Part shown: in pieces, positions 27,527-41,312 of the stretch
How positions within the stretch are numbered: the first letter of the stretch is position 1
How the letters are laid out: the number at the start of each line of letters is the position of its first letter
Assembly (NCBI RefSeq): GCF_001441535.1
Contig: NZ_LMAU01000008.1
Coordinates: 1 to 45,695, forward strand
DNA from: Tsuneonella troitsensis
GTDB taxonomy: Bacteria; Pseudomonadota; Alphaproteobacteria; Sphingomonadales; Sphingomonadaceae
Reading direction: 5' to 3'
Length of the DNA stretch: 45,695 bases
Notes under the pieces: generated by a model
Database searches by the model: none
The model's input: the letters and a program-made list of their open reading frames with translations, nothing else
Told to the model about the DNA's origin: nothing
Position numbers and translations under genes: made by a program

Positions 27527-28219
27527 ATGAGTGAACCCGCCCCCGCTGCGACCCCGGCAGCCGCCACTTACACCATCCCCCGCGCGCTTTTCGTGTATCT
27601 GCTGCTATACGGCGGCATGACGGTGGTTGCGGGCGTCATGGCCTACAAGCAGGTCGCCTTGTGGCCGACGTCGCTCGCGGTCGAGTCCGGCATCTTCGCC
27701 TTCCTGATCCTGGTGGTCATCTCCAGCACCGTGGCCCAGCTTTATGGTGACGCGATAGCGCGCAAGATCGTGTGGTGGGGATTCCTCCCGTTGCTGGTGT
27801 CGTCGCTGCTGATGCAGCTCGTCCTCAACCTGCCCGCCTCGGTGGAAATGGTCGAGTTCCGCGCCGACGATCTTGCCGCTTTCGAACGGGTGCATTCACA
27901 GCTCTGGCGGGTGTGGATGGCCGGACCCGCCGCCTACATCGTCTCGCTGCTGCTCAACGTGTGGATATTTTCCAAGCTGCGGGGCAGCGGAGAAGGCACC
28001 ACGCTTGGCATCATGGCGCGCGGCGCGATCGCCTCGGCCTTGAGCCAGGCGATCGACTCGGTGATCTTCATCACCCTGGCGTTTTACGGCGAATTCGCCA
28101 TCGAGAGCCTGCTGATCGGGCAGGTCCTGGCCAAGGTAGCGCTGTCGATCGTCCTCGTGCCGCCGCTCATTGCGCTAGGCGTGGGCCTCGCGCGCAAGCT
28201 CGATTCCAAGCCGCTCTAG
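27527..28219 (+). CDS. Queuosine precursor transporter, YhhQ/VUT family
   Basis: 230 residues from ATG 27527 (27518 is also possible; neither has a strong ribosome site). Six or so membrane helices: LFVYLLLYGGMTVVAGVMA, SLAVESGIFAFLILVVISSTVAQLYG, WWGFLPLLVSSLLMQLV, then a cytosolic segment and MAGPAAYIVSLLLNVWIF, RGAIASALSQAIDSVIFITLAFYG, LLIGQVLAKVALSIVLVPPLIAL. The ASALSQAIDSVIF motif is a YhhQ hallmark. The family imports preQ0/preQ1 for tRNA queuosine. Its stop shares CTAG with the convergent RibB-like gene (28216-28219). Confidence 0.88.
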   Translation: MSEPAPAATPAAATYTIPRALFVYLLLYGGMTVVAGVMAYKQVALWPTSLAVESGIFAFLILVVISSTVAQLYGDAIARKIVWWGFLPLLVSSLLMQLVLNLPASVEMVEFRADDLAAFERVHSQLWRVWMAGPAAYIVSLLLNVWIFSKLRGSGEGTTLGIMARGAIASALSQAIDSVIFITLAFYGEFAIESLLIGQVLAKVALSIVLVPPLIALGVGLARKLDSKPL

Positions 28220-28806
28220 CCGAGCAGGTCGCCGATATCGGCGACGGGAATCGAATGGCGCGCCAGGAAGCCGGCCATGTCGTCGATCCGGGCCATCTCC
28301 CCGTCGTCGCGCATGATCGAGCAGATGACCGCCGCGTCGCCCGCGCCCGCGCGGCGGCACAGCTCGATCGCCGCCTCGGCGGCTGCGGGGCGTTCGGCAA
28401 CGCCACCTTCGGCCGTGATCAGCGGAAACACGTGACCCGGCGAAACGATGTCGCTCGCGGTCGCGCCGTCCGCCACCGCGACCGCGATCGTGTGCGCCCT
28501 GTCCGCAGCCGAGATGCCGGTCGACACGCCGCTCGCCGCCTCGATAGATCGACCGTGCGGCCGGCCCGACTGGTTCTCACGCCCCGGATTGATCAGTTCG
28601 ATGCCGAGTCGCACCGCGCGCGCCGGAGTCAGCGCGAGGCACACGAGGCCGCGCCCGTGCGTGGCGAGGAAGTTCACCGCGTCTGCGCTGACATGGCGCG
28701 CCGCCACGCAGAAATCGATGTCCCCGCCGCGCAGCCGGTCCCCGGTGATAACGATGATGCGTCCCTCGGCCAGGGCATCGAGAGCCGATTGCAGCGCCCC
28801 GCTCAT
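28216..28806 (-). CDS. RibB-like protein (DHBP synthase fold) lacking catalytic residues
   Basis: 196 residues from ATG 28806, overlapping the reductase stop (ATGA). The fold is that of 3,4-dihydroxy-2-butanone 4-phosphate synthase: GRGLVCLALTP, GVSTGISAADRAHTIAVAVADGA, SPGHVFPLITAEGGV and DDGEMARIDDM line up well with RibB. The active site is gone: the canonical RENEGD becomes RLRGGD (both Glu lost), GHTEA becomes AAAEA (metal-ligand His lost), and the CEL Glu is Ser (CSI). I infer a pseudoenzyme or altered enzyme, not riboflavin synthesis. Being last in a flavin-monooxygenase operon, it may bind a sugar phosphate or flavin precursor. Confidence 0.85.
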   Translation of the reverse strand: MSGALQSALDALAEGRIIVITGDRLRGGDIDFCVAARHVSADAVNFLATHGRGLVCLALTPARAVRLGIELINPGRENQSGRPHGRSIEAASGVSTGISAADRAHTIAVAVADGATASDIVSPGHVFPLITAEGGVAERPAAAEAAIELCRRAGAGDAAVICSIMRDDGEMARIDDMAGFLARHSIPVADIGDLLG

Positions 28807-29378
28807 TGATTGCACTCCCCCTGCGACAAGGCGCAGGCGCCGCGATAGGTCTGCTGGCCGACGAGCTCGATCTGCATCCGGGCACGGTCTTCCAGGCATT
28901 CGCCGTCGGGCGAGAACAACCCGTGATACACCCGCACGGTGGCGCCCATCGGGGTCGGCCAGCCGCGCAGCGCGTGAACGACGGAGCGCAGCGTCTGCAG
29001 CGTGCTCATCGTCGCCTGGTCGCCATAGGCGGTGGCGATCAGCCCGACCGCACGGCCGTCGAGATAGGGGCGCTCGTCCTTGGCCAGGTCCTCGAGGTAA
29101 TCGAGTGCGTTCTTGACGAGGCCCGAGATGCTGCCGTGATATCCGGGCGCGGAGATGATGAGGCCGTCGGCCTGCCGCACCGCCTCGACGAATTCGGCGC
29201 CGTCCTGAATGCCGTAACCCTCGCCGCGATAGTGCGGCAGGCCGCGCAGGTAATCGCCGCCGAAGATCGTCACTTCGGCGCCGGCGGCTTCGGCCGCGGC
29301 GGCGGCGAGGCGCATGGCCTGTTCGGTCGAACTGCCGGTGTTCACGGTGCCGCCGATGCCGACGATACGGGTGGTCAT
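28803..29378 (-). CDS. NAD(P)H-dependent FMN reductase (SmoA-like)
   Basis: 191 residues from ATG 29378; the same frame continues to 30626 but that is a shadow of glpD. A flavodoxin-like fold with the phosphate-binding loop GIGGTVNTGSSTEQAMR, the flavin contact SAPGYHGSISGLVKNALDYLEDL (typical of SsuE/ChrR-type reductases), and AVGLIATAYGDQATMSTLQTLRSVVHAL. It gives FMNH2 to a partner monooxygenase in the cytosol. Its likely partner is the LLM oxygenase encoded two genes upstream. ATGA overlaps join it to glpD before and to the RibB-like gene after. In the Agrobacterium smo system the equivalent is SmoA. Confidence 0.9.
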   Translation of the reverse strand: MTTRIVGIGGTVNTGSSTEQAMRLAAAAAEAAGAEVTIFGGDYLRGLPHYRGEGYGIQDGAEFVEAVRQADGLIISAPGYHGSISGLVKNALDYLEDLAKDERPYLDGRAVGLIATAYGDQATMSTLQTLRSVVHALRGWPTPMGATVRVYHGLFSPDGECLEDRARMQIELVGQQTYRGACALSQGECNQ

Positions 29379-30886
29379 TGGGGGCACTCCTGCTTGATGA
29401 ATTCGTCGAGGCTGGCGGCTTCTTCGGGGCCGAAGCGAAGGCCGAGCTTGGTGCGGCGCCATAGCACGTCCTCGGCCGTGCGCGCCCATTCCCGTGTGAT
29501 CAGGTGGCGCACCTCCTGCTCCGTCAGTCCGTGGCCGAAATCGCGTCCACAGTCGGCAAGGCACGAAGCGCCATCGAAAATGGGCAGCGCGGTCGTCCCG
29601 TAGGCGCGCACGATGCGGTGCGACGCGCCGGACAGGAAGGGGAATCGGTGCACGAACTCGGCCTCGAGCGCGGCCACGCCGTCGACGGCGAAATCGCCGC
29701 CGGGCAGCGGCTTCTCGCCGGTCCAGTCGTCGCCCCGCAGCACCGGCAGTCTTGCGCCGAGCGTTTCGACCGCCTCTGCCGCCAGATGGCGATAGGTCGT
29801 GATCTTGCCGCCATAGATCGACAGCAGCGGCGCGCCTTCGTCGGCATCGGACAGGTCGAGGTCGTAGCCCCGCGTCGCCGCCTCGGGCCGGCCCGATCCG
29901 TCGTCGATCAGCGGACGCACGCCGGAGTACGTCCACACGACATCGTCCGGTGTCACAGGCTGGCGGAAGAACCGGCTGGCGCCCTCGCAAAGATACGCGA
30001 TTTCCTCGGCGCTGGCTTCGATCGGGCCGCTGTCGTGATCGACGTCGGTGGTGCCGATCAGGGTGAAATCCTGCTCGTAAGGAATCCCGAAGAAGATCCG
30101 TCCGTCGGGGAGCTGGAAGAAATACGAGAACGGATGATCGAACAGCTTGCGCACCACGATGTGCGAGCCGCGCACCAAACGCATCGCCTTGTCCGGCTGG
30201 AGCCCGCTTCCGGTCAGCAGGTCGATGACGCCCGGCCCCGCCGCATTGACCACGGCCCGCACGCGGAAGGTCTCGCCGCCGGCCTCGATCCGCCATCGCT
30301 CGCCATCGCGGCGCATCGCGGTCACCCGGCTCCGGGTTCGCACCTCCGCGCCGCGATCGGCCGCGTCGCGCGCGTTGAGCACGACGAGGCGCGCATCGTC
30401 GACCCAGCAATCGGAATAGACGAAGGCCGTGGTGAATTCCGGCTTGAGCGATGCGCCCGCCGGATGGCTGGCGAGCGATACCGTCTCGGTCGCCGGCAGG
30501 CGTTTGCGACCTCCGATATGGTCGTAGAGGAACAGCCCTGTCCGCACCAGCCAGCGAGGCCGCAGGCCGGGCACGTGCGGCAACACGAAGCGCATCGGCC
30601 AGGCGATGTGCGGCGCGATGCCCCACAGCCGCTCGCGCTCCGATAGGCTCTCGCGCACCAGTCCGAACTCGTAATGCTCGAGGTAGCGCAGGCCGCCGTG
30701 AATGAGCTTGGTCGACGCCGACGACGTTCCACAGGCCAGATCGTCCGCTTCGAGCAACAGCACCTTGGCGCCCCTGCCCGCGGCGTCGCGGGCGATCCCG
30801 CAGCCGTTCACCCCGCCGCCGATCACGGCAAGGTCGTAGAGGGTGTCCGCTTCGCTCACCGGATCAGTCGAACTTGAGCGGACCAT
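29375..30886 (-). CDS. glpD: FAD-dependent glycerol-3-phosphate dehydrogenase
   Basis: 503 residues as drawn from ATG 30886; a GTG at 30859 (four bases past the monooxygenase stop) would remove nine atypical residues, and neither has a clear ribosome site. Motifs include the Rossmann DLAVIGGGVNGCGIARDAAGRG, LLEADDLACGTSSASTKLIHGGLRYLEHYEFGLVRESL (the GlpD FAD/substrate region), IVVRKLFDHPFSYFFQLPDGRIFFGIPYEQDFTLIGTTDVD, and the C-terminal domain. It oxidises sn-glycerol-3-phosphate to DHAP at the inner membrane, feeding quinone. No glpF, glpK or glpR is nearby; its place in the sulfoquinovose cluster fits removal of glycerol freed from sulfoquinovosyl glycerol. Confidence 0.93.
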   Translation of the reverse strand: MVRSSSTDPVSEADTLYDLAVIGGGVNGCGIARDAAGRGAKVLLLEADDLACGTSSASTKLIHGGLRYLEHYEFGLVRESLSERERLWGIAPHIAWPMRFVLPHVPGLRPRWLVRTGLFLYDHIGGRKRLPATETVSLASHPAGASLKPEFTTAFVYSDCWVDDARLVVLNARDAADRGAEVRTRSRVTAMRRDGERWRIEAGGETFRVRAVVNAAGPGVIDLLTGSGLQPDKAMRLVRGSHIVVRKLFDHPFSYFFQLPDGRIFFGIPYEQDFTLIGTTDVDHDSGPIEASAEEIAYLCEGASRFFRQPVTPDDVVWTYSGVRPLIDDGSGRPEAATRGYDLDLSDADEGAPLLSIYGGKITTYRHLAAEAVETLGARLPVLRGDDWTGEKPLPGGDFAVDGVAALEAEFVHRFPFLSGASHRIVRAYGTTALPIFDGASCLADCGRDFGHGLTEQEVRHLITREWARTAEDVLWRRTKLGLRFGPEEAASLDEFIKQECPQ

Positions 30887-31958
30887 GCTCGATATGCGGC
30901 AGCACGTAGCGTGCGAACATGTCGCACTCGTTCACGTGAGGATAGCCCGAGAGGATGAACGCCTCGATCCCTTCCGCCTGGTAGGCGCGCAGCTTCGCGA
31001 GCACCTGGTCGGGCGTGCCGACGATCGCGGCGCCGCAGCCAGAGCGGGCCCGGCCGATACCGGTCCACAGGTTTTCCTCGACGAAGCCGTCCCCGTCCGC
31101 CGCGCCGCGCAGTTCGGCCTGCCGCTGCACGCCGTAGTTCTTCGCGTCGAGCGAGGCTTCGCGGATCGCGCGGCCCTTCTCGTCGTCGAGCTTGGACAGA
31201 AGCCGGTCGGCATAGGCCCGCGCCTCGTCTTCGGTCTCGCGCACGATGACGTGCACGCGGTATCCGAACTTGAGCGTGCGGCCATACTTCGCGGCGCGCT
31301 GCGTCAGGTCGGCGATGTTCTCGCGCACCTTGTCCATCGTATCGGGCCACATGAGGTACACGTCGCACGCTTCGGCCGCGCACTCGCGCGCCTCGTGGGA
31401 CAGGCCGCCGAAGTAGAACGGCGGGCACTTGCCGCTGATCGTCGTCACGCGCGGCGGGTCGAGCGTGAGCTGATAGTGCTCGCCTTGGTGGTCGATGCTC
31501 TCGCCGTTCAAAAGCGCACGGACGATCTTCATCACCTCGGTGGCGCGGCCATAGCGCGGACCGCCCGGCATCGACTGGCCCGGCATGTCGGACGAGATGA
31601 TGTTCACGTTGAGGCGCCCGGCTGTGCCGGCGGCATTGGGGCCGAGAATCCGGTCGAGCGTCGCGATCCTGCGCGCAAGCTGCGGCGGCCAGTCCTCGCC
31701 GATGCGGGTCGCCCACAGCAGCTTCATGCGCTGGAGCATCGGCGCCATCGCTGCGGCGAACACGGTCGTATCGAGGCCGAGCTGATAGCCCGACGGCAGC
31801 AGGATATTGTCGAACCCGCCCTCTTCGGCGCGCAGCACGATGTTGCGGCAGTGCTCCCAGCTCGACTGGAGCTGCGGATCGGGGACACCGAGGAACTCGT
31901 AGTCGTCATCGCACAGCGCGGAAAACCACGCGATCTCGCATTGTTGGGCCTGGGTCAT
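30864..31958 (-). CDS. LLM-class flavin-dependent monooxygenase (SsuD/SmoC-like)
   Basis: 364 residues from ATG 31958, overlapping the AKR stop (ATGA). A bacterial-luciferase TIM barrel close to alkanesulfonate monooxygenase: EIAWFSALCDD, RAEEGGFDNILLPSGYQLGLDTTVFAAAMAP, LNVNIISSDMPGQSMPGG (phosphate region), YFGGLSHEARECAAEACDVYLMWPDTMDKVRENI, and FVEENLWTGIGRARSGCGAAIVGTPDQVLAKLRAYQAEGIEAFILSGYPH. This class uses FMNH2 and O2 to break a C-S bond, releasing sulfite and an aldehyde. With the sulfoquinovosidase and FMN reductase in the same operon, sulfoquinovose is the likely substrate, as for SmoC; simple alkanesulfonates are the alternative. Confidence 0.88.
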   Translation of the reverse strand: MTQAQQCEIAWFSALCDDDYEFLGVPDPQLQSSWEHCRNIVLRAEEGGFDNILLPSGYQLGLDTTVFAAAMAPMLQRMKLLWATRIGEDWPPQLARRIATLDRILGPNAAGTAGRLNVNIISSDMPGQSMPGGPRYGRATEVMKIVRALLNGESIDHQGEHYQLTLDPPRVTTISGKCPPFYFGGLSHEARECAAEACDVYLMWPDTMDKVRENIADLTQRAAKYGRTLKFGYRVHVIVRETEDEARAYADRLLSKLDDEKGRAIREASLDAKNYGVQRQAELRGAADGDGFVEENLWTGIGRARSGCGAAIVGTPDQVLAKLRAYQAEGIEAFILSGYPHVNECDMFARYVLPHIEHGPLKFD

Positions 31959-32869
31959 GGCAACCTCTCTCCTCGCGCGGCGACGAGCACCGCGTACCAA
32001 TCCTGCCGCGTCCAGCGCATGGCGAGCGCCCGCGCCGCCTCGGCAATGCGGTCCGCGCTCTGCGATCCGACGATGGGAACGATCCCGGCGGGGTGCGCAA
32101 TCAACCAGCCGTAGGCCGCGACGCTGCGGCCGACGCCCTGCTCCTGCGCCACACGGTCGAGCTCGGCCGCGACCGCCTTGTCGCGCGGGGTTTGGGGCGA
32201 CAGCAGCCGACCTCCGCCAAGCGGAGACCATGCCAGCGGAGTCATGCCCATCCGCATCGCCTGGTCGAGTTCGCCGTTCTCGAACGGCTCGATCCGCAGC
32301 GGGCTGATCTCGGGCTGGGTCGTCGCGATCGGCTGGCCGAGGAAATGGCTCAGCGCTTCGGTCTGCGCTTGCGTGAAGTTGGACACGCCCAGCGCGCGAA
32401 CCTTGCCGGTCGACACCGCGTTTTCGAGCGCGCGGGCCACTTCCTGGGGATGGGCGAGAATGTCGGGACGATGGACCTGCCACAGGTCGATCGTGTCCAC
32501 CCGGAGGCGTCGCAACGAATCGTCGATCGCCTGCGCGATGTATTCGGGCGACTGGTCATATGGCAGCGGCGGACGGATGCCGCCCTTGGTCGCCAGGACC
32601 ATGCGGCCGCGCAGTCCCGGTTCGGCCGCCAGGACCTCTCCCAGCAATGCCTCGGCATCGCCGAAGCCGGCTTGCCCGTCGAAGCCGTAGATGTCGGCGG
32701 TGTCGAGCAGGGTGATCCCGGCATCGAGCGCCGCATGGACGAGGCGCGCCGCTTCGCCCGCGCTGCGCCCGCCCTCGGCAAGCCGCCACATCCCCCAGGC
32801 GATCGGCGATATCCCGATCCCGCTCGACCCGAGCGAACGGGTGACAGGAGGGGCGGTCAAAAGGCTCAT
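31955..32869 (-). CDS. Aldo/keto reductase (SmoB-like candidate)
   Basis: 304 residues, ATG 32869 overlapping the LacI stop (ATGA). The tetrad is present: Asp and Tyr in LLDTADIYGF, Lys in VLATKGGIRPP, His in LWQVHRPDIL. GVSNFTQAQ, the substrate loop and PIVGSQSADRIAEAARAL (NADP binding) follow the AKR pattern, nearest to the YdhF-type. In the sulfo-SMO pathway SmoB reduces 6-oxo-glucose to glucose; position directly before the monooxygenase gene supports that role. By sequence alone it could reduce other aldehydes or ketones. Length is standard and no signal peptide is present. Confidence 0.9.
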   Translation of the reverse strand: MSLLTAPPVTRSLGSSGIGISPIAWGMWRLAEGGRSAGEAARLVHAALDAGITLLDTADIYGFDGQAGFGDAEALLGEVLAAEPGLRGRMVLATKGGIRPPLPYDQSPEYIAQAIDDSLRRLRVDTIDLWQVHRPDILAHPQEVARALENAVSTGKVRALGVSNFTQAQTEALSHFLGQPIATTQPEISPLRIEPFENGELDQAMRMGMTPLAWSPLGGGRLLSPQTPRDKAVAAELDRVAQEQGVGRSVAAYGWLIAHPAGIVPIVGSQSADRIAEAARALAMRWTRQDWYAVLVAARGERLP

Positions 32870-33876
32870 GCAGGTCTCCGGAAGGGCGGCGCGACCGATG
32901 CGCGCTCGATGAGTTGGTGCGGCAGGCGGCGGTGGCTGATCTCGCCGCCCGCGATGAGGATTTCCGCAGCCGTGTGCGCCAGTTCGGCCATCGGCTGGTG
33001 GATCGTGGTCAGCGGCGGCCAGACGGTCCGCGCCAGAGTGGTATCGTCGAACCCTGCGACCGAGAGCCTGGACGGCACGTCGATCCCCCGCGTGTGCGCT
33101 TCGGCCAGTACGCCGGCGGCCATGTCGTCGTTCGAGGCAAAGATCGCGGTGGGCGGTTCGGGCATGTCGAGCAGCGCTGCGGCCGCACGCACCCCGCTGT
33201 CAAAATCGAACTCGCCGTCGATCACCAGCGCCGGCTCGAAGCCGATGCCCACGCGGTCGAGCGCCTTGCGATAGCCGTAGAGCCGCTCCTCGCTCGCCAT
33301 GTGGCTGGGGTGCCCTTTCACGAAGCCAATCCGGCGGTGGCCCTGGTTCACGAGGTGCGTCGTCATGTCGTCGCCCGCCTGGACGTCGTCCATGAACACC
33401 GAACTGGTCAGCGCGTGGTTGGTCCCCGGCGAAATGCGCACGAACGGAATGTCGAGCGTATCGAGCACCGCCAGCACGGCGGCGCAGTCGGTCACCGGGG
33501 ATGACAAGATGATCCCGTCGACGTGGGTTTCCGAGATCAGCCCGCGCACTTCGGCCCCGACCGCCGGATCGTCGACGTCGACCGGCTGCGCGAGCAAGCG
33601 GATGCCCTTCGCGTGGCAATAGTCCCAGCAGCCCTTCTGGATCTGGAAGGTATAATAAGGGCTGTGGTTGTCGTAGATCAGCGCGACCTGGTTCGATTTC
33701 GCGCCCGACAGGATGCGCGCCGCGACGCTGGGTCGGAAATCGAGGTCGGCCATCGCAGCCTCGACCCGCTGACGCGTCGCCTCGCTGACGTAGGGATGAC
33801 CGTTCAGCACCCGGCTGACAGTTTTGACCGCCACTCCGGCGCGCGCGGCCACATCGCGAATGTTCGATCGGCTCAT
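32866..33876 (-). CDS. LacI-family transcriptional regulator of the sulfoquinovose operon
   Basis: 336 residues from ATG 33876 (frame open to 34017). The N-terminal HTH reads SNIRDVAARAGVAVKTVSRVLNGHPYVSEATRQRVEAAMADLDFRPS, with the hinge helix ARILSGAKS, followed by a periplasmic-binding-type domain (QVALIYDNHSPYYTFQIQKGCWDYCHAKGIRLL, SSVFMDDVQAGDDMTTHLVNQGHRRIGFVKGHPSHMASEERLYGYRKAL, IFASNDDMAAGVLAEAHTRGIDVPSRLSVAGFDD). It is the second gene of the operon, joined by ATGA at both ends, so it would control its own synthesis. The likely inducer is sulfoquinovose or a product. A candidate operator lies at 35929-35957. Confidence 0.92.
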   Translation of the reverse strand: MSRSNIRDVAARAGVAVKTVSRVLNGHPYVSEATRQRVEAAMADLDFRPSVAARILSGAKSNQVALIYDNHSPYYTFQIQKGCWDYCHAKGIRLLAQPVDVDDPAVGAEVRGLISETHVDGIILSSPVTDCAAVLAVLDTLDIPFVRISPGTNHALTSSVFMDDVQAGDDMTTHLVNQGHRRIGFVKGHPSHMASEERLYGYRKALDRVGIGFEPALVIDGEFDFDSGVRAAAALLDMPEPPTAIFASNDDMAAGVLAEAHTRGIDVPSRLSVAGFDDTTLARTVWPPLTTIHQPMAELAHTAAEILIAGGEISHRRLPHQLIERASVAPPFRRPA

Positions 33877-35930
33877 CCTGCGAGCGCCCCCGGCAGCCGT
33901 GCGAAGACCGGCGCGAATGCGCTGCCTTCCCGATAGAACACCGGCGGAAAGCCGATCGGCGCGTCGACGGTGTGAGTGCCGGGCATATACCTTTCGCCCG
34001 ACCATACATGGATCCACGGCCCGCTGCCGGGCAGGATCACCTTACGCTGGCTGGCACCTTCCTCGATCACGGGAGCGACGATCATGTCCGCCCCGTAAAG
34101 ATACTGGTCCTGCACCGCAAACAGCGCGGGGTCGTCGGGATATTCGAGGAACAGGGGGCGCTGGAGCGGAAGGCCGGTCGCGGCGGCCTCGTCGCTCAAC
34201 GCGCGGACATAAGGCGTCAGCGCGGCATGGACCCGGCTCCAGCGCGCGAAGCAGGCCAGCAGTTCGGGCGTGCTGTCGTATTGCAGGTTTTCGTCCGGCC
34301 GATTGCCTTCGTGGCTGCGCATGACCGGCGCGAATGCGGCGAGTTCGCACCACCGCTGCAGCAGCTCCTCGCTCCGCACGTTTCCTAGCAGCGAGGTGTA
34401 GCCGCCGCAGTCGGAATGGCTGTAGGCGTTGCCGACAAGACCCGCCGACAGCGCCCCGGTGACGACGGTGCCGATCCCGTCGTGGCGGGTGAAATCGACG
34501 CTCTGGTCGCCCGCCCACAGCAACGGGCAATGCGCCTGCACGCCCGAGAAACCGGCGCGCATGAAGAATACCGCATCGCCGGTCTTGCCGCGACTTTCGA
34601 GAGCCATCGCGTTGACCTCGGCCCAGAGCACGGGCCATCTGTTGTGCATCTCCATCGGGTCGCTGCCGTCGGCCAGGCGCAGATCGGTGGGGAGATACTC
34701 GCCGAAATCGGCCATCCAGCCCATGATCCCGCGATCGAGCATTTCGCGCCCCAGAATGCGCTCGGCGAACCAGACCTTGGTCTCTTCGCGGGTAAAATCG
34801 ACCACGCCGCAATCGAACTCACCGAAATCGACAAGGTACGGTTCGTCGCTTTCGAGACCGAGGCAGAAGTGCCCCCCTTCGAGAGCCTCTGCATAGAGGT
34901 CCGCATCGACCGACAGGTACGGATTGGCATAGGCCATGAACCGTATGCCGCGGTCCGCCAACGCGGCGATCCGCGCCTCCAGATCGGGATACCGTGCGGC
35001 GCTGCGCGCGCCGACCTGCCAGTCCCAGAACAGGCGGCGGCCGAAGCTCGTTTCGCGGATACCCGCCCAGTCCTCGCACCAAAGGCCCGCGATCGCCGCG
35101 CCGGCATCGACGAAATTTTCCAGCCGGTCGAAGCTCGATGCACCGGACTTGAGGCCCACGATCGCCCCGCCGATCGCCCAGTCGGGCAGCGGAGGCTGGC
35201 GGCCGAAGCGGTCGGCAAGCTGGCCGACCAGCCCCTTCGGCCCATCGGCGGCAAACAGTTCAAACCGCGCCGTGCCGGACCACACTTCGACCGCGTGCGC
35301 TTTCGAGTCAGTGAAATCGAGGACGCTGTAGCACGTCTCGTCGAGGTGGACCGCGATCCAGCGCGAGGTCAGGAACGTCGGCTGCGGGTAGTTCGTGTGA
35401 TAGTAATCGCCACCCGCCATTCCGGCTTCGTCCATCGCGCGGGTCAATTCGGTCGACTTGTCGCGCCCCACGCCCGGCTCGCTGGTCCACATCGGGAAAC
35501 GGCGGCCATTGAGCGCGAAGTAGCTCATCTGCTCGCCGCCGCCCCAGACGGACTCTTCGAGCTCGGCGTGGAAGCGGAAGTACATGCGGTCGAACGATGG
35601 ATCGTCGCACGTGACCGTCAGCGCAGGGCCGTCCCACTCGATGCGCGCGCCATCGAAGCGCACGCCGCCATCGAACGCGTCCCACGCCGCCAGTTCGCGA
35701 CGGCCCTGCGGCGCATCGTCGATCCGGAAGTTGCCCCGCACCATCTCGATATCGGGCCTTCCGCGGGCAATGGCCAGCGCAGGACAATCCAGGGCATGGC
35801 GCAGCACGGTCCGGCCACCGAAAAGCAGCTCGAAACCGTCTTCCACGGCCTTGAACTCGATCGACTGCGCCAAATTCTCCCCCGTAGCGACCGTACGCCC
35901 ACCTTCAAGCAGGCACCAGGCATGCGCCAT
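33873..35930 (-). CDS. Sulfoquinovosidase (GH31, YihQ/SmoI-like)
   Basis: 685 residues from ATG 35930 (frame open to 35978; a TTG at 35873 after GGGGGAG is also possible, since YihQ aligns only from about there). Close to E. coli YihQ throughout: EMVRGNFRIDD, GGGEQMSYFALNGRRFPMWTSEPGVGR, SFGRRLFWDW. Catalytic nucleophile Asp408 (GWMADFGEYLPTD) and acid Asp475 (LWAGDQSVDF) correspond to D405/D472. Sulfonate-recognition residues are kept: Arg299 and Trp302 (RLFW), Tyr511 (HSDCGGYTS), with Lys251 (GLKSG) and Glu286 (LWCEDW) instead of two Gln, that is, the KERWY form I recall from the Agrobacterium enzyme. It would cleave sulfoquinovosyl glycerol to sulfoquinovose and glycerol. No signal peptide, so cytosolic. 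Confidence 0.92.
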   Translation of the reverse strand: MAHAWCLLEGGRTVATGENLAQSIEFKAVEDGFELLFGGRTVLRHALDCPALAIARGRPDIEMVRGNFRIDDAPQGRRELAAWDAFDGGVRFDGARIEWDGPALTVTCDDPSFDRMYFRFHAELEESVWGGGEQMSYFALNGRRFPMWTSEPGVGRDKSTELTRAMDEAGMAGGDYYHTNYPQPTFLTSRWIAVHLDETCYSVLDFTDSKAHAVEVWSGTARFELFAADGPKGLVGQLADRFGRQPPLPDWAIGGAIVGLKSGASSFDRLENFVDAGAAIAGLWCEDWAGIRETSFGRRLFWDWQVGARSAARYPDLEARIAALADRGIRFMAYANPYLSVDADLYAEALEGGHFCLGLESDEPYLVDFGEFDCGVVDFTREETKVWFAERILGREMLDRGIMGWMADFGEYLPTDLRLADGSDPMEMHNRWPVLWAEVNAMALESRGKTGDAVFFMRAGFSGVQAHCPLLWAGDQSVDFTRHDGIGTVVTGALSAGLVGNAYSHSDCGGYTSLLGNVRSEELLQRWCELAAFAPVMRSHEGNRPDENLQYDSTPELLACFARWSRVHAALTPYVRALSDEAAATGLPLQRPLFLEYPDDPALFAVQDQYLYGADMIVAPVIEEGASQRKVILPGSGPWIHVWSGERYMPGTHTVDAPIGFPPVFYREGSAFAPVFARLPGALAG

Positions 35931-35957
35931 ATGACACCGCTTGACACATCGGGTCAA
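35929..35957. promoter_or_regulatory. Candidate LacI operator and divergent promoter elements
   Basis: TTGACACATCGGGTCAA (35941-35957) is an interrupted palindrome with TTGAC/GTCAA arms. Its left arm gives a perfect -35 TTGACA for the receptor gene and its right arm gives TTGACC for the opposite direction. Adjacent at 35929-35940 is the 12-mer ATATGACACCGC, repeated at the YeiH start. A bound LacI protein would block both promoters. Confidence 0.5.
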
Positions 35958-36005
35958 TGGGCGCATTTCCCGGGCCAACGAAAGTGTTTCTCAGGGAGGG
36001 GTTTC

Positions 36006-38342
36006 ATGTTCCGCACGGGTTTCCGTTCGCGCGCGCTTGCGCTGTCGGGCAGCATCATCGCAATCGCCGCGGCCAATCCGGCCTTTGCGCAGGACGCCGC
36101 CGAGCCCGTCGATGACGGCGGCATCGAAGAGATCATCGTCACCGCCAACAAGGTCGCCGAGAACGTCCAGGACGTGCCGATCGCGATTACCGCGCTGACC
36201 TCGGATCGCCTCGAAGCCGCGGGCACCACCAGCCTCGAAGGCATTACTCAACTCGTTCCCTCGGTCACCTTCCGCAAGGGTACAACGAGCGCGAACAGCG
36301 CGATCGTGATGCGCGGCGTGGGCACGATCACCTTCTCGATCGCTGCCGAGCCGAGCGTGTCGACCGTGGTCGACGGAATCGTCCTCAGCCGTTCGGGCCA
36401 GGCGTTCATGGACCTCGTCGATGCGGAGCGCCTCGAAGTCCTGCGCGGGCCGCAGGGTACCCTGTTCGGCAAGAACGCCAGCGCCGGCCTCGTGAACATC
36501 GTCTCCAAGGGTGGCACCGACAGCCTCGAGGTCGAAGCGCGCGCCGAATATTACGAAGGCGACGAATACCGCCTGCGCGCTTCGCTGTCCGGGCCCTTGG
36601 GCGATGATGTCAGCGCACGCGTTACCGGGTTCTACGGCAACTACGACGGCAACATTACCAATATCTTCGGCGGGACCGACAACCAGGTCAACGGATACGA
36701 GCACTACGGCGTCCGCGGCATTCTGGACTACAACGGCCCGGCGGCGCGCGTGCGCTTGATTGCCGACTATTTCCGCGCGAACGATGATTGCTGCGCCGAC
36801 ATAACCACCGTCAGCCGCGGCGCCGTGCTGGACGCGGAACTCGGGTTGCCGGGCGGTGTCGCTCAGGGCCTGGACCAGCGCTACGTGAACCACAATCTCG
36901 TCACACAGACGAAGGACACCCAGATCAGCTTCACCGCCAGCGCGGATGTCGACCTGACCGACACGCATACGTTGAGCGTTGTCACCGGGTATCGCAATTG
37001 GAAGAATCGCGAGCTTCGCGAGGGCGACTTCCTGCCACGCGCCATCGTCGGTACTAACGAGCTTCACGACGAAGGTCTGGTCACCACCGACCAGCTTTCA
37101 TTCGAGGCGCGTATCGCGTCCGACACCGCGATGCCGTTCTCGTATCAGGTCGGAGCATTCGCATGGCATTCGGACAACACCCAAATCTTCACTCGTGAGG
37201 ATATCGTCTGCGCCACCTCGACCTTGCCGGTCGCGCCGAGCGGCGCACGGCCATGCAACCTGCTCGATACGGTCAACACGCTGTTCCCCACGGCTACGTC
37301 GGAAAGCGACGTCAGTTCGTCCAACTTCGCGGTCTTCGGACAGGGAACGTTCCGCTTCAGTGATCTGCTCGCGCTCACCGGTGGCCTGCGATACACGTGG
37401 GACGATCTTTCGTTCATCCACATCCGCGCGCCGGGCGTAAACGCGACCACCGGGCTTCCCGCGACCGGACCAGGCATTTCGGGCGCCCCGGCAGGCGGAA
37501 CAATCGCCAGCGGCGGGAACGGCACCAACATTTCGCGCGGCAGCAGCACCAACGGCAACCTGTCCGGCAAGGCCGTGCTGCAGATCACCCCGTCGGACGA
37601 CGTGATGCTCTACGGCAGCTACACGCGCGGCTACAAGGGGCCCGCGTTCAACGTCTTCTTCAACCACACCGCGCCGACCAACGCGATCCCGATCGACGAA
37701 GAGACCTCCGACGCGTTCGAGATCGGCGCGAAGACGCAGTTCTTCGACAACCGGGTTCAGCTGAACGTCGCCGGCTTCATGGTCGAGTATGACGGCTTCC
37801 AGGCGAACAACTTCGTCCTGCTGAATGGAGCGGTGGTGAGCAACCTGACCAATGCCGGCACGGTCAAGTCGCAGGGCTTCGAGGTCGACCTGCAGGCCGT
37901 TCCGGTCGACGGACTGACGCTGCGCGCAAGCGCGGCCTATGCCGATGCCTTCGTCAAGGAATTCAACCCGAACCCGCAGACCAACGCCCCCGACGCGCGC
38001 AACGGCACGCAGCTTCCGCTGGCGCCGAAGTTCGTCTACACGCTGGGCGCGGGTTACGAGGGCGACCTCGGTGGGATGAAGCTCTACCTCGACACCGACT
38101 ATCGCCACGTCAGCAAGCAGTTCTCCGACCTCGGCGAGAGCGGGCCGATCGATCCCTACGGCATCTGGAATGCCTCGATCGGGTTCTCGGACGCCGAGGA
38201 CCGCTATCGCCTGACCCTGCACGCCCGCAACATCACCGACGAGAGCTACGCCCTGCTCAACGTCAGCAATGGCCAGCGCTTGCAGATTCCGCGCGACGCG
38301 GACCGCTATTTCGGCGTCAGCCTGCGTGCACGCATCCGGTAA
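36006..38342 (+). CDS. TonB-dependent receptor, likely for sulfoquinovosyl glycerol or sulfolipid sugars
   Basis: 778 residues from ATG 36006, strong ribosome site AGGGAGGGG at 35993-36001; the frame runs far upstream but is antisense to the sulfoquinovosidase gene. Signal peptide (SRALALSGSIIAIAAANPAFA), TonB box GIEEIIVTANKV, plug (QDVPIAITALTSDRLEAAG, RGVGTITFSIAAEPSVSTVVDG, DVERLEVLRGPQGTLFGKN-like) and a 22-strand barrel ending FGVSLRARIR. A CC pair in an extracellular loop (NDDCCADIT) may form a disulfide. It is divergent from the sulfoquinovosidase gene over 75 bases with shared candidate control sites, so the substrate is probably a sulfoquinovose glycoside. The match by sequence is only to the general receptor family. 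Confidence 0.92.
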   Translation: MFRTGFRSRALALSGSIIAIAAANPAFAQDAAEPVDDGGIEEIIVTANKVAENVQDVPIAITALTSDRLEAAGTTSLEGITQLVPSVTFRKGTTSANSAIVMRGVGTITFSIAAEPSVSTVVDGIVLSRSGQAFMDLVDAERLEVLRGPQGTLFGKNASAGLVNIVSKGGTDSLEVEARAEYYEGDEYRLRASLSGPLGDDVSARVTGFYGNYDGNITNIFGGTDNQVNGYEHYGVRGILDYNGPAARVRLIADYFRANDDCCADITTVSRGAVLDAELGLPGGVAQGLDQRYVNHNLVTQTKDTQISFTASADVDLTDTHTLSVVTGYRNWKNRELREGDFLPRAIVGTNELHDEGLVTTDQLSFEARIASDTAMPFSYQVGAFAWHSDNTQIFTREDIVCATSTLPVAPSGARPCNLLDTVNTLFPTATSESDVSSSNFAVFGQGTFRFSDLLALTGGLRYTWDDLSFIHIRAPGVNATTGLPATGPGISGAPAGGTIASGGNGTNISRGSSTNGNLSGKAVLQITPSDDVMLYGSYTRGYKGPAFNVFFNHTAPTNAIPIDEETSDAFEIGAKTQFFDNRVQLNVAGFMVEYDGFQANNFVLLNGAVVSNLTNAGTVKSQGFEVDLQAVPVDGLTLRASAAYADAFVKEFNPNPQTNAPDARNGTQLPLAPKFVYTLGAGYEGDLGGMKLYLDTDYRHVSKQFSDLGESGPIDPYGIWNASIGFSDAEDRYRLTLHARNITDESYALLNVSNGQRLQIPRDADRYFGVSLRARIR

Positions 38343-38369
38343 CGAGTAGGCTGACTGACGGCACTATCG

Positions 38370-38399
38370 ACGGCCGCGGAGGGAAACTTCCGCGGCCGT
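38370..38399. terminator. Hairpin between converging TonB receptor and csaA
   Basis: ACGGCCGCGGA (38370-38380) and TCCGCGGCCGT (38389-38399), continuing inward through G-T and G-C pairs to a GAAA tetraloop (38383-38386). T-runs are weak on both sides, but the position between convergent genes favours two-way termination. Confidence 0.7.
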
Positions 38400-38407
38400 T
38401 CGATTGC

Positions 38408-38779
38408 CTAGAACAGGCGCGAACCCAGCGGGACGTCGTGGTCGGGTTCGAACAACACGACCTCTCCGTCCCCATCCGCAAATCCGACCGTCAGCACTTC
38501 GGACATGAATTTGCCGATCTGACGCGGCGGAAAATTCACGACGGCAGCGACCAGGCGACCTGGCAGGTCCTCGATGCCGTAGCGCGCGCAGATCTGCGCC
38601 GAAGATTTGCAGATACCCACGCCCGGACCGAGATCGATCACGAGCTTGTAGGCAGGCTTGCGCGCCTCCGGAAACTCCTCTGCCGAAACGATCCGGCCCA
38701 CGCGGATATCGACGCACAGGAAGTCGTCGAAGGCGATGGTCTCAGCGGGCGGATCGGCGGGGTCGTGGTTCACGTGCAT
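38408..38779 (-). CDS. csaA: tRNA-binding / CsaA-like chaperone protein
   Basis: 123 residues, ATG 38779. The full OB-fold signature is visible: ETIAFDDFLCVDIRVGRIVSAEEFPEARKPAYKLVIDLGPGVGICKSSAQICARYGIEDLPGRLVAAVVNFPPRQIGKFMSEVLTVGF. CsaA dimers bind tRNA and have been tied to protein export in Bacillus. It ends near the terminator hairpin and starts 51 bases after the MFS gene on the same strand, so it may be read from the MFS promoter. No evident tie to sulfoquinovose use. Confidence 0.93.
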   Translation of the reverse strand: MHVNHDPADPPAETIAFDDFLCVDIRVGRIVSAEEFPEARKPAYKLVIDLGPGVGICKSSAQICARYGIEDLPGRLVAAVVNFPPRQIGKFMSEVLTVGFADGDGEVVLFEPDHDVPLGSRLF

Positions 38780-38830
38780 CCACGATGCACTAGCGCATAC
38801 GCGCGAGCCCGTGGAGACCTCGGGTGGCGC

Positions 38831-40123
38831 CTACTGTCCCTCGTCCTCGGCCACGATCTTGGGCACCAGCAGATGGATCCACGCCAGCGCCGTGAGGTAG
38901 GCGACCGCAGCCGCCCAGAACAGCGGGGCATAGCCGATCCCGGACGTCAGCAGCGCGCCGGTCGCCTCCTGGATGCCGAACCCGGCGACGTTGCCGGCGA
39001 TAGCGCCGATCGCCATCACGGTCGCCACGCGGCGCGCCGGGATCGCATCGGCGGCAAAGCCGAAGATGTTGGTCGAGAAACCCTGGTGCGCGAACAGGCC
39101 CAGCCCGATGATCGCCGCCGCGGTCCACGCACTGTCGACCGTCAGCGCGAGCGGGATCGGCAGGATGATCAGGCCGTACAACAGCATGCTGGTCTTGCGC
39201 GCTGCGTTGACCGACCGGCCCTTGCCCAGCAGCACCCCGAACAGCTTGCCCGCCGTCAGGGCGCCCACGGCGGCCATCGAGAACGCAAGTGCAGTCGGAC
39301 CCACGAGCTCGGTCTGCGACAGGTTGAACACCTTGTTGAACAGGTCGGGCAGCCAGAAGGTGAAGAACCACCAGAACATGTCGGTGATCGCCTTCGCGCC
39401 GGCGATGGCCCAGGTTTTCCGGTCGGCGAACGCTTCGCTGTAGGACGATCGCACCGGCGTGCCCTCGGGCCGGGCCGCGCGCGGCAGCGGCCGCAGGTCG
39501 CGGGTGCCCCAGATCCACGCCGCGAGCCACACGAAGCCCAACAGGCCGGTGACGATGAACGCCGCCTTCCAGCCATAGATCACCGCGAACGGCACCACCG
39601 TCAGCGGCGCGAGGATATTGCCGATGTTGGGCGCCGTGTTGACGATCCCCATGCCCATCGTGCGCTGGCGGATCGGCAGGTATTCCGCCGCCGCCTTGAC
39701 CGCTGCAGGCGTGTTCACCGCCTCGAACGCCACGAGCGCAACGCGCGCAGTCACGAACTGCGATACGGTTGCCGCCACCGCGTGCGCCATTCCGGCGACC
39801 GACCACAGGGCGACCGCCGCGCCATAGGCGAGCTTCACCCCGAACCGGTCGATGATCCAGCCGACGAACAGCAGCGCGCCGGCCGCGGCGAGCTGGCTGG
39901 CGGATGCGAAGTGGGCGAACTCCGCGTCGCCCCAGCCGTATTCGGCCGAGATCGTCGGCTTGAGCAGCGAGAGGACCTGGCGGTCCACGTAGTTGATGAT
40001 CGTCCCGAAAAAGAGCAATGCGATGAGCCAGTTGCGGGTCCGCGCGATGGCGCGTTCGTCCGCCTCGCTCGCCGCCTGGACGCCGCCCGCGAGCGCGCCG
40101 CTCGCGTTATCCCCGTCGGTCAT
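38831..40123 (-). CDS. MFS transporter, ExuT-like (candidate sulfoquinovose or glycoside importer)
   Basis: 430 residues from ATG 40123 with the strong ribosome site GGGAGAGG. Twelve helices; the first has INYVDRQVLSLLKPTIS, the hallmark of the anion:cation symporter family that moves hexuronates and related organic anions. The loop WIIDRFGVKLAYG and the 6/7 loop GTRDLRPLPRAARPEGTPV follow family form. No ABC importer is in the region, so this is the candidate inner-membrane step for the negatively charged sulfosugar. It is divergent from YeiH over 76 bases. Function is inferred from family and place only. Confidence 0.85.
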   Translation of the reverse strand: MTDGDNASGALAGGVQAASEADERAIARTRNWLIALLFFGTIINYVDRQVLSLLKPTISAEYGWGDAEFAHFASASQLAAAGALLFVGWIIDRFGVKLAYGAAVALWSVAGMAHAVAATVSQFVTARVALVAFEAVNTPAAVKAAAEYLPIRQRTMGMGIVNTAPNIGNILAPLTVVPFAVIYGWKAAFIVTGLLGFVWLAAWIWGTRDLRPLPRAARPEGTPVRSSYSEAFADRKTWAIAGAKAITDMFWWFFTFWLPDLFNKVFNLSQTELVGPTALAFSMAAVGALTAGKLFGVLLGKGRSVNAARKTSMLLYGLIILPIPLALTVDSAWTAAAIIGLGLFAHQGFSTNIFGFAADAIPARRVATVMAIGAIAGNVAGFGIQEATGALLTSGIGYAPLFWAAAVAYLTALAWIHLLVPKIVAEDEGQ

Positions 40124-40197
40124 CGTGCCTCTCCCGCCACGCCCTTGCGGCGCGTCCGGCTTGCACGATACCCATTCGCGAGCGTAAGGGAAGAATA

Positions 40198-40209
40198 ATA
40201 TGACACCGC
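40198..40209 (+). promoter_or_regulatory. Repeat of the 12-mer ATATGACACCGC at the YeiH start
   Basis: Identical to 35929-35940, covering the ATG of the YeiH gene at 40200 just as the first copy covers the start of the sulfoquinovosidase gene. It is a candidate shared operator half-site. Confidence 0.4.
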
Positions 40210-41312
40210 CGGACAATCGCGGTCGCCAGGGGCCGATAGACTGGGACACGCTGCCCTATGGCGGCGATCTGTTCGGTGAAATCTATCTGGCGGAAACCGC
40301 GCCGGCCGAAGCCCCCCCGCGAAAGCCACTGTCGCGCTTCCTGCCGGGACTCGCGGTCGTCGGTGTGGCCGCCGGAACCTCTGCCTGGCTTGCCGAGCAC
40401 TATGGCTTCCCGATCATCCTCCTGGGGTTGCTGATCGGTCTCGCACTCAATTTCGTCGCCCCCGAAGAGGCGACTCATCCAGGTCTCGACCTCGCCAGCC
40501 GGACCTGCTTGCGCTGGGGAATCGTAGCCCTCGGATTCCAGGTGACGATCGCGCAGGTGCTCGACCTTGGACCTTGGCCTTTCGCGGCGCTGGTCGCGAT
40601 CATGCTCACCGCGTTCTTCGCCGGGGTCGGCGGTGCGGCGATATCCGGGCAGTCCCGCTATGCCGGCATCCTGGCGGGCGGCGCGACGGCAATCTGCGGC
40701 GCCAGCGCGGCGCTAGCGCTCTATGGCGTGATCGGGCGCGACCGCTTGAGCCAGGCGCAGTTCGCCCTCACGCTGGTCGGCGTCAGCCTTGCCAGTGCGC
40801 TGGCCATGTCGCTCTATCCCGTGATCGCCGCCGAGATGGGGCTCACTGACAGCCAAGCCGGATTCCTGATCGGCGCATCGATCCACGACGTCGCGCAGGC
40901 GATCGGCGGGGGCTTCACCTACTCCGACGCGGCCGGCGCGGAGGCGACGATCATCAAGCTCTCGCGCGTCGCCCTGCTCGGACCGGTCATGATCCTCGTC
41001 GCGCTGTGGATCGGCAATTCGGCGGCGGACTCGCGCCAGCCGCTCTGGCGCCGGATCACGCTGCCGTGGTTCATCCTGGGCTTCATCGCGTTGGTAGTGG
41101 TGAACAGCACGGGCGTCGTGCCTGCCGCCGCGCAGGACGCGATGATGACCGCATCCAAGGCGCTGCTCCTGTTCGCCGTGATCGCGACCGCGATGCGTTC
41201 GGACATGGCGCTGATCATGCGCCTGGGATGGCGCGCGGCCACTCCGGTCGCGTGCGCCACGCTCGCCAGTTTCCTTGCGGCAGCCGCCGCGATCTGGCTG
41301 GGCGCGGCGTGA
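40200..41312 (+). CDS. YeiH-family putative sulfate/sulfite exporter
   Basis: 370 residues, ATG 40200, with AAGGGAAG about 7 bases before. After a cytosolic start come some ten helices, with the family (UPF0324) motifs GIVALGFQVTIAQVL, AGILAGGATAICGASAALAL, GFLIGASIHDVAQAIGGGF and KLSRVALLGPVMI. Relatives are named putative sulfate exporters and often sit beside genes that release sulfite, such as taurine or sulfonate degradation. Here it would remove sulfite or sulfate made by the SmoC-like step. No sulfite dehydrogenase gene is visible, so which anion is moved is open. Divergent from the MFS gene. Confidence 0.88.
   Translation: MTPPDNRGRQGPIDWDTLPYGGDLFGEIYLAETAPAEAPPRKPLSRFLPGLAVVGVAAGTSAWLAEHYGFPIILLGLLIGLALNFVAPEEATHPGLDLASRTCLRWGIVALGFQVTIAQVLDLGPWPFAALVAIMLTAFFAGVGGAAISGQSRYAGILAGGATAICGASAALALYGVIGRDRLSQAQFALTLVGVSLASALAMSLYPVIAAEMGLTDSQAGFLIGASIHDVAQAIGGGFTYSDAAGAEATIIKLSRVALLGPVMILVALWIGNSAADSRQPLWRRITLPWFILGFIALVVVNSTGVVPAAAQDAMMTASKALLLFAVIATAMRSDMALIMRLGWRAATPVACATLASFLAAAAAIWLGAA

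What the first reader, a model, noticed from the sequence alone, without database searches (positions are those of the whole stretch)
28216..41312. Sphingomonad-type sulfoquinovose oxidative desulfurisation locus with receptor, MFS and exporter
Seen: a minus-strand run of seven genes (GH31 with sulfoquinovosidase residues, LacI, aldo/keto reductase, SsuD-like monooxygenase, GlpD, FMN reductase, RibB-like) with ATGA overlaps at five of six junctions, a divergent TonB receptor, then MFS and YeiH. Known: the Agrobacterium sulfo-SMO pathway uses a sulfoquinovosidase, an FMN reductase, an SQ monooxygenase and a 6-oxo-glucose reductase, with an ABC importer. Inference: this is the same chemistry with an outer-membrane receptor plus MFS instead of the ABC importer, and with added GlpD and RibB-like parts. 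The architecture may not be described as a unit.
Basis: partly seen in the sequence, partly recalled or inferred. Interest (0 to 1): 0.9.

Follow-up and report, generated by a model that had tools for sequence, protein, structure and literature searches.

The report
Sulfolipid-sugar operon with degenerate RibB
This stretch of a sphingomonad genome looks like a kit for eating the sulfur-containing sugar of plant membranes, a pathway already known in related bacteria, but it comes with a strongly conserved candidate control switch and a look-alike of a vitamin-B2 enzyme that has lost key catalytic residues and whose new job is unknown.

Summary
In detail: seven minus-strand genes with ATGA overlaps at five of six junctions, a divergent TonB receptor, then MFS and YeiH. 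By sequence the chemistry is the known sulfo-SMO (sulfo-ASMO) pathway of sulfoquinovose (SQ) breakdown, already characterised in Novosphingobium aromaticivorans, so the core is not new. Comparative work adds three things. (1) The layout recurs in sphingomonads: hits for TonB receptor in 70, MFS 66, GlpD 58 and YeiH 52 of 80 named loci. (2) A 15-bp element between GH31 and the receptor is present (at most one mismatch) in 84 of 88 distinct loci with this LacI and GH31 and in 0 of 53 others; a related site sits at the MFS/YeiH promoter, and these two are the only matches to the shared motif in the genome: a predicted two-promoter regulon. (3) The 'RibB-like' protein keeps the DHBP-synthase fold but has lost H153 and E174 in 45 of 45 orthologues and E38 in 43 of 44; it is under purifying selection, sits beside the FMN reductase, and in a sample of 397 genomes occurs only in monooxygenase-bearing ones (31 of 31). 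GlpD is the genome's only copy and fits use of the glycerol half of SQ-glycerol. All functions are inferred.

The parts
28216..28806 (-). RibB-like protein, DHBP-synthase fold without key catalytic residues
   Evidence: PF00926 190 bits; residue table over 45 orthologues; model pLDDT 92.4, TM 0.91-0.93 to its ten best solved matches, all DHBP synthases; dN/dS 0.07-0.16
28803..29378 (-). FMN reductase (PF03358), candidate electron source for the monooxygenase
   Evidence: PF03358 92 bits; about 31 bits to SsuE/MsuE models, far below their cut-offs
29375..30886 (-). GlpD, FAD glycerol-3-phosphate dehydrogenase; only GlpD of the genome
   Evidence: PRK13369 700 bits; own-genome search gives only one further, 25-bit partial hit
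30864..31958 (-). SQ monooxygenase (SmoC/SquD type)
   Evidence: best solved relatives 7olf 376 bits and 7oh2 365 bits, against 212 (7jv3) and 196 (1nqk, 1m41)
31955..32869 (-). aldo/keto reductase (SmoB/SquF type), proposed 6-oxo-glucose reductase
   Evidence: best solved relatives 7bbz/7bby 180/178 bits, against 156 for the next
32866..33876 (-). LacI-family regulator, predicted to bind the 15-bp element
   Evidence: PF00356 and Peripla_BP_3; element in 84 of 88 distinct loci with LacI of at least 60% identity and GH31, 0 of 53 others
33873..35930 (-). GH31 sulfoquinovosidase (start codon uncertain)
   Evidence: PRK10426 861 bits; 831 bits to 5ohy; seven functional positions invariant in 68 of 68
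35932..35946 (-). operator-like element TGTCAAGCGGTGTCA in the GH31/receptor divergent promoter
   Evidence: only exact copy in the 2.9-Mb genome; exact upstream of GH31 in 77 of 92 distinct loci, one mismatch in 7 more
36006..38342 (+). TonB-dependent outer-membrane receptor
   Evidence: PF07715 and PF00593; a receptor hit in 70 of 80 named loci
38831..40123 (-). MFS transporter, candidate inner-membrane importer
   Evidence: PF07690 146 bits; TIGR00893 galactonate-type 120 bits, below cut-off 395
40201..40215 (-). second operator-like site (2 mismatches) in the MFS/YeiH divergent promoter, overlapping the YeiH start codon
   Evidence: TGTCNNNCGGTGTCA occurs twice in the genome, here and at 35932; reversed-pattern control 0; motif near YeiH in 53 of 71 distinct loci, in 41 of these it cannot be YeiH coding sequence
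40200..41312 (+). YeiH-family transporter, candidate sulfite/sulfate exporter
   Evidence: PF03601 171 bits; TIGR00698 103 bits, below cut-off 232.6
38408..38779 (-). CsaA/tRNA-binding-like ORF between receptor and MFS, probably a bystander
   Evidence: PRK10089.1-4 167 bits; in 1 of 80 named loci and 1 of 60 further loci

Best explanation
A sphingomonad sulfo-SMO operon. SQ-glycerol (deacylated plant sulfolipid) or SQ is taken up by the TonB receptor and the MFS carrier (inferred). GH31 cuts it into SQ and glycerol (inferred from strong homology and conserved residues). FMN reductase supplies FMNH2; the monooxygenase with O2 splits the C-S bond into sulfite and 6-oxo-glucose; the AKR reduces this to glucose (inferred from nearest solved relatives). 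Glycerol goes through GlpK, encoded elsewhere, and GlpD to DHAP (inferred). YeiH exports sulfite or sulfate (inferred). The LacI protein controls both divergent promoters through a 15-bp operator and a second, related site (the conserved DNA elements are shown; binding is inferred). The RibB-like protein is not a working DHBP synthase (residue loss shown; loss of activity inferred); most likely it has become a ligand-binding partner of the flavin step, possibly binding FMN through its ribityl phosphate (speculative).
For: GH31. SMO and AKR nearest solved relatives. Synteny in 80 named loci and in 60 more, 58 of them distinct from the 80. Operator; in a sample of 397 Sphingomonadaceae the exact 15-mer is in 34 genomes, 33 of them SMO-positive. 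GlpD sole copy; one FGGY kinase on contig C7 whose reading frame looks by eye like glycerol kinase; GlpK in the fetched stretch of 20 of 80 named loci and directly after GlpD in N. pentaromativorans. A gene annotated 'putative sulfate exporter' also in a Rhizobium SMO-AKR-flavin-reductase-TRAP cluster. RibB-like. Pathway known in N. aromaticivorans (passages of PMC9594981, PMC12890257).
Against: No experiment on any of these genes. The AKR margin over other reductases is modest (180 v 156 bits). A 68%-identical monooxygenase in Rhizobium sp. WSM4643 lies beside an ABC importer and arabinonate genes, with no AKR, GH31 or close LacI match in the 19 kb fetched, so close homologues may have other substrates. 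57 of 80 named loci show no such FMN reductase in the stretch held (some truncated), so it is not a fixed part. GlpD and FMN reductase also sit together in three SMO-negative genomes of the window's genus, so they are not SQ-specific. In many loci the best MFS hit is only 36-41% identical and in others the best receptor hit about 42%, so the substrate of either is unproven. YeiH falls below its NCBIfam cut-off. In the window alone a scan with up to 3 mismatches finds 2 sites where shuffles give 0.99 on average, so the second site rests on the comparison across loci and on the stricter genome pattern, not on that scan. In 12 of 53 loci, the window included, the second site could be YeiH coding sequence.
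Confidence: 0.82

Rival explanations
1. The operon degrades a different sulfonated sugar or glycoside (not SQ) with the same kind of enzymes.
For: A close monooxygenase homologue (68%) lies in a pentonate/ABC context in Rhizobium; 39 of the 60 further SMO loci show no hit to this GH31 (some truncated).
Against: GH31 matches sulfoquinovosidases with all checked positions invariant in 68 of 68; 34 of those 60 loci carry a Gfo/Idh protein, the type of the NAD-dependent GH188 SQases that PMC10755693 reports in sulfo-SMO clusters (passages).
Confidence: 0.1
2. The RibB-like gene is a working DHBP synthase that boosts flavin supply for the FMN-dependent monooxygenase.
For: DHBP-synthase fold; gene beside the FMN reductase in 30 of 30 loci tested; a second FMN reductase of T. 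litorea lies next to a canonical RibBA (L258).
Against: E38, H153 and E174 are replaced in 43 of 44, 45 of 45 and 45 of 45 rows with a residue, against E 30 of 30, H 29 of 30 and E 30 of 30 in canonical RibB. The genome has a separate RibBA with canonical residues.
Confidence: 0.07
3. The RibB-like gene is a decaying duplicate without function.
For: Catalytic residues lost; not found in 58 of 80 named loci (some truncated).
Against: dN/dS 0.07-0.16, within the range of its neighbours; 66% mean column identity and 44 invariant columns over 45 orthologues, among them R82 (T in 28 of 30 canonical, R in none) and R166 (N in 27 of 30, R in 1).
Confidence: 0.05
4. The conserved 15-mer is a promoter element (TTGACA -35 box of the receptor gene), not an operator.
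For: On the receptor strand it contains TTGACA, with further conserved bases about 17 bp on (read by eye).
Against: Conservation spans 15 bp plus a flanking T and A; it tracks the LacI gene, 84 of 88 against 0 of 53; a related copy lies at a second divergent promoter.
Confidence: 0.15

Closest known systems
Sulfo-ASMO (sulfo-SMO) pathway of Novosphingobium aromaticivorans DSM 12444 (SquD, SquF)
   Same: Same order of bacteria, SQ monooxygenase and aldo/keto reductase, found through sulfoquinovosidase-containing clusters; said to lack SsuE (passages of PMC9594981).
   Different: Here an FMN reductase plus RibB-like pair is present. In the two reviews the words TonB, YeiH, GlpD, RibB, LacI and operator do not occur in the main text (word searches); the original paper is not held, so its own cluster drawing was not seen.
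Agrobacterium sulfo-SMO operon (SmoA, SmoB, SmoC, SQase, ABC importer)
   Same: Closest solved relatives of GH31, SMO and AKR (that 7olf, 7oh2, 7bbz and 7bby are the SQ-pathway enzymes is recalled).
   Different: No ABC importer among the genes of the locus; flavin reductase of the PF03358 family. A Rhizobium cluster's 'flavin reductase family protein' has no hit in the 80 named loci and one in the 60 further ones (E 1e-15, half the length).
[quoted passage not shown]
   Same: Fold, TM 0.91-0.93 to the ten best; R37 kept in 44 of 45 and D42 in 43 of 45.
   Different: E38, H153, E174 lost; invariant R82 and R166 in place of the usual T and N.
GH188 NAD-dependent sulfoquinovosidase clusters (PMC10755693)
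   Same: Alternative glycosidase in sulfo-SMO clusters; a figure legend lists a Sphingomonas strain.
   Different: The window uses GH31; Gfo/Idh homologues are in 34 of 60 further loci and 0 of 80 named ones.

Membership tests
sulfo-SMO (sulfo-ASMO) pathway | SQ monooxygenase (SmoC/SquD) | tested here: met
   376/365 bits to 7olf/7oh2, 212 to the next; SsuD model TIGR03565 248 bits, cut-off 518. Sequence only.
sulfo-SMO (sulfo-ASMO) pathway | 6-oxo-glucose reductase (SmoB/SquF), PF00248 | tested here: met
   best solved relatives 7bbz/7bby, modest margin. Sequence only.
sulfo-SMO (sulfo-ASMO) pathway | flavin reductase (SmoA/SsuE) | tested here: inconclusive
   an FMN reductase is present but scores about 31 bits against SsuE/MsuE-type cut-offs of 164-225; SmoA itself was not compared
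sulfo-SMO (sulfo-ASMO) pathway | SQ to glucose plus sulfite | not testable with these tools
   needs growth or enzyme assay
GH31 sulfoquinovosidase (YihQ) | sulfonate-site residues K/E/R/W/Y and two catalytic Asp (roles recalled) | tested here: met
   invariant in 68 of 68 sequences (window plus named-locus GH31 over 50% identity and 600 aa; the rest dropped); aligned to 5ohy; PRK10426 861 over 553
RibB (DHBP synthase) | fold | tested here: met
RibB (DHBP synthase) | metal and acid-base residues E38, H153, E174 (roles partly recalled) | tested here: not met
   H153 lost 45 of 45, E174 lost 45 of 45, E38 lost 43 of 44 rows with a residue; TIGR00506 161 below cut-off 177
GlpD | curated model | tested here: met
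   PRK13369 700 over 352
YeiH putative sulfate exporter (TIGR00698) | curated model | tested here: not met
   103 of 232.6 bits; PF03601 is met, so a relative only
LacI repressor of this operon | binds the 15-mer and responds to SQ | not testable with these tools
   co-occurrence only

The most novel reading that the evidence does not exclude
A catalytically dead RibB has been recruited as a dedicated component of a two-component flavin monooxygenase system: it keeps part of the Ru5P site (R37, D42), has gained invariant arginines (R82, R166), and binds FMN or FMNH2 (whose ribityl 5'-phosphate resembles Ru5P) or the sulfosugar, acting as a flavin carrier, partner or sensor for the FMN reductase and SQ monooxygenase.
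Probability: 0.25. Interest if true: 0.8.

Novelty: new variant of a known kind. Interest (0 to 1): 0.55.

Why it matters
SQ is described as one of the most abundant organosulfur compounds (PMC12890257 abstract and passages), and Novosphingobium dominated SQ assimilation in mangrove incubations (PMC13372026 abstract). The locus gives sphingomonads a candidate import, cleavage, glycerol-use and sulfite-export kit with a predicted two-promoter regulon that can be tested at once. The RibB-like protein would be a clear case of a vitamin-biosynthesis enzyme turned pseudoenzyme in a catabolic operon, and may show how reduced flavin is handled in these systems.

Tried and rejected
Generic LacI palindrome TGWNANCGNTNWCA in the window: one off-site match, at chance level. 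Palindrome and half-site counts in promoters gave no motif; it appeared only when the promoter sequences were read side by side. Hits of the 15-mer with up to 2 mismatches genome-wide are at chance level (5 against 4 for the reversed pattern), and with up to 3 in the window too (2 against 0.99 expected), so the claim rests on exact sites, the stricter pattern and the comparison across loci. A working RibB for flavin supply was rejected on residues. A RibB-like protein outside the family: none seen in 385 class genomes (only five of them of the window's family); own 345 bits, next 240, and the 29 best others inspected keep E38, T154 and E174 (H153 is H in 28 or more); lower-ranked hits were not inspected. 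RibB-like orthologues were counted at E 1e-55 or better, so more diverged ones would be missed. The one SMO-negative genome with an exact 15-mer (G305) shows none of the locus genes in the 15 kb fetched (L266). In one search the genome's RibBA was read on the wrong strand; corrected. Scripts (in part) and 68 stopped on an error; redone, whose random background contains some true sites. The motif names QQRWY/KERWY gave no paper and are recalled. The original Agrobacterium and N. aromaticivorans papers are not held.
Full report
What is there. The genes stated are open, in the stated order and orientation, and five of six junctions are ATGA overlaps by coordinate. Family scans give GH31 (PRK10426/YihQ model, 861 bits over a cut-off of 553), a LacI regulator, an aldo/keto reductase, an SsuD-like luciferase-type monooxygenase (248 bits to the SsuD model, cut-off 518, so not SsuD itself), GlpD (700 over 352), an FMN reductase of PF03358, a DHBP-synthase-like protein, a TonB receptor, an MFS carrier and a YeiH relative. 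The window is a whole 45,695-base contig of a 2.9-Mb genome estimated 100% complete; the best named match of its monooxygenase is in Tsuneonella litorea (96%).

Which pathway. The nearest solved relatives are 5ohy/5ohs for GH31 (831/829 bits), 7olf/7oh2 for the monooxygenase (376/365 bits, next 212) and 7bbz/7bby for the reductase (180/178, next 156). That these entries are the Agrobacterium and Rhizobium SQ enzymes is recalled; the tool shows deposited names only. Seven GH31 positions (sulfonate site and two catalytic Asp; roles recalled, aligned to 5ohy) are invariant in 68 of 68 sequences. This fits oxidative SQ cleavage to sulfite and glucose. The pathway is published for Agrobacterium and for Novosphingobium aromaticivorans, whose cluster is said to lack SsuE (passages of PMC9594981 and PMC12890257), and Novosphingobium assimilated 13C-SQ (abstract and passages of PMC13372026). 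So the core is known.

How general the layout is. In 80 named loci (the best 80 of 192 found; several cut by contig ends) hits of at least 60 bits covering at least 30% of a query, at any identity, were: SMO 80, AKR 80, LacI 77, GH31 73, receptor 70, MFS 66, GlpD 58, YeiH 52, FMN reductase 23, RibB-like 22, CsaA 1. Over the 60: SMO 60, AKR 57, receptor 52, MFS 38 (hits under 33% left out), LacI 30, GH31 21, YeiH 19, GlpD 7, FMN reductase 6, RibB-like 4, CsaA 1. A Gfo/Idh protein, the type of the GH188 sulfoquinovosidases, is in 34 of these 60 and in 0 of the 80. In a sample of 397 Sphingomonadaceae, 104 carry the monooxygenase at E 1e-60. A Rhizobium plasmid cluster has SMO, AKR, a 'flavin reductase family protein', a TRAP transporter and a 'putative sulfate exporter', so the exporter link is wider than sphingomonads. 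Against a simple reading, a 68%-identical monooxygenase in another Rhizobium lies among ABC importer and arabinonate genes with no AKR or GH31 match in 19 kb and only a 25%-identical LacI.

Glycerol half. The operon GlpD is the genome's only one (the second hit is a 25-bit partial match); one FGGY kinase lies on another contig. GlpK is in the fetched stretch of 20 of 80 named loci and follows GlpD in N. pentaromativorans plasmid pLA3, in the order receptor(-), GH31, LacI, AKR, SMO, GlpD, GlpK. The likely reading is use of both halves of SQ-glycerol. GlpD and FMN reductase, twice with YeiH, also stand together in three SMO-negative genomes of the window's genus, so this group is separable.

The operator. 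Reading GH31 upstream regions side by side showed one nearly fixed stretch; the consensus of 87 sites is TATGTCAAGCGGTGTCANA. After removal of two duplicate contigs, the exact 15-mer is upstream of GH31 in 77 of 92 loci and with one mismatch in 7 more; over 141 distinct loci it is present (at most one mismatch) in 84 of 88 with LacI of at least 60% identity and GH31, and in 0 of 53 others, some of which are truncated (86 of 90 before removal). In the family sample the exact 15-mer is in 34 of 397 genomes, 33 of them SMO-positive; the reversed control hits 2 of 397. In the window genome the exact 15-mer is unique, and TGTCNNNCGGTGTCA occurs exactly twice, here and at the MFS/YeiH promoter, with no control hit. 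Looser scans of the window or genome are at chance level. The second motif is near YeiH in 53 of 71 distinct loci; in 30 it is out of the YeiH frame and in 11 in frame but with a stop, so in 41 coding constraint cannot explain it; in 12, the window included, it could be coding. Up to three mismatches upstream of YeiH: 54 of 71, against under one expected in random stretches; for MFS 41 of 98, against about one. I infer one LacI regulon of two divergent promoters. Binding is not shown. One search for such a regulator in print (sulfoquinovose, LacI, operator) listed no sphingomonad paper among the ten shown of 2,278.

The RibB-like protein. It aligns without gaps to the three solved DHBP synthases shown, and its model (pLDDT 92.4) matches its ten best solved structures, all DHBP synthases, at TM 0.91-0.93. 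Over 45 orthologues E38 is replaced in 43 of 44 rows with a residue, H153 in 45 of 45 (A 39, T 6) and E174 in 45 of 45 (S 35, A 10), while R37 (44 of 45) and D42 (43 of 45) are kept. In 30 canonical alphaproteobacterial proteins, the genome's own RibBA among them, E38 and E174 are kept in 30 and H153 in 29 (numbers by alignment, roles partly from PMC5228156, Results part 1, and recall). R82 and R166 are invariant in the 45; the canonical 30 have T in 28 and no R at the first and N in 27 and R in 1 at the second. dN/dS against three relatives is 0.07-0.16, within the range of its neighbours. It is next to the FMN reductase on the same strand in 30 of 30 genome loci (coordinates show the same for the 31st, G235), and all 31 genomes with it at E 1e-55 are among the 104 SMO-positive of 397 (hypergeometric 2e-20, not corrected for kinship). 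The FMN reductase family itself is broader (112 of 397 genomes, 54 of them SMO-positive). I conclude a conserved pseudoenzyme tied to the flavin step of this pathway. Its ligand is unknown; FMN, whose ribityl phosphate resembles Ru5P, is my first guess.

Verdict. The core is a known pathway. The sphingomonad regulon and the RibB-derived pseudoenzyme were not found described in the held library by the searches (listings) and the word searches in three papers (PMC9594981, PMC12890257, PMC13372026). The original pathway papers are not held, so earlier description of the layout cannot be excluded.

Noticed in passing
window 38408-38779 (-): CsaA/tRNA-binding-like ORF between receptor and MFS, seen in only 1 of 80 named and 1 of 60 further SMO loci.
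   Followed up: partly
window 27521-28216 (+): Queuosine precursor transporter (TIGR00697) on the other strand, meeting the 3' end of the RibB-like gene.
   Followed up: no
   Followed up: partly
L246, L247, L248 (SMO-negative genomes of the window's genus): GlpD next to FMN reductase, twice with divergent YeiH, without a hit to the SQ genes in the 12 kb fetched: a separable group or what is left after loss.
   Followed up: partly
L268 (Rhizobium sp. WSM4643 plasmid): A 68%-identical monooxygenase beside a LacI gene, an ABC importer and arabinonate dehydratase, without AKR or GH31 match: perhaps another sulfonated sugar.
   Followed up: partly
L269 (Emticicia oligotrophica plasmid pEMTOL05): 45%-identical monooxygenase in Bacteroidota next to a sodium/solute symporter and a GH95 protein.
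   Followed up: no
L244 (G184) receptor: Receptor only 46% identical to the window's while the other shared genes compared are 73% or more: receptor exchange at a conserved operon.
   Followed up: no
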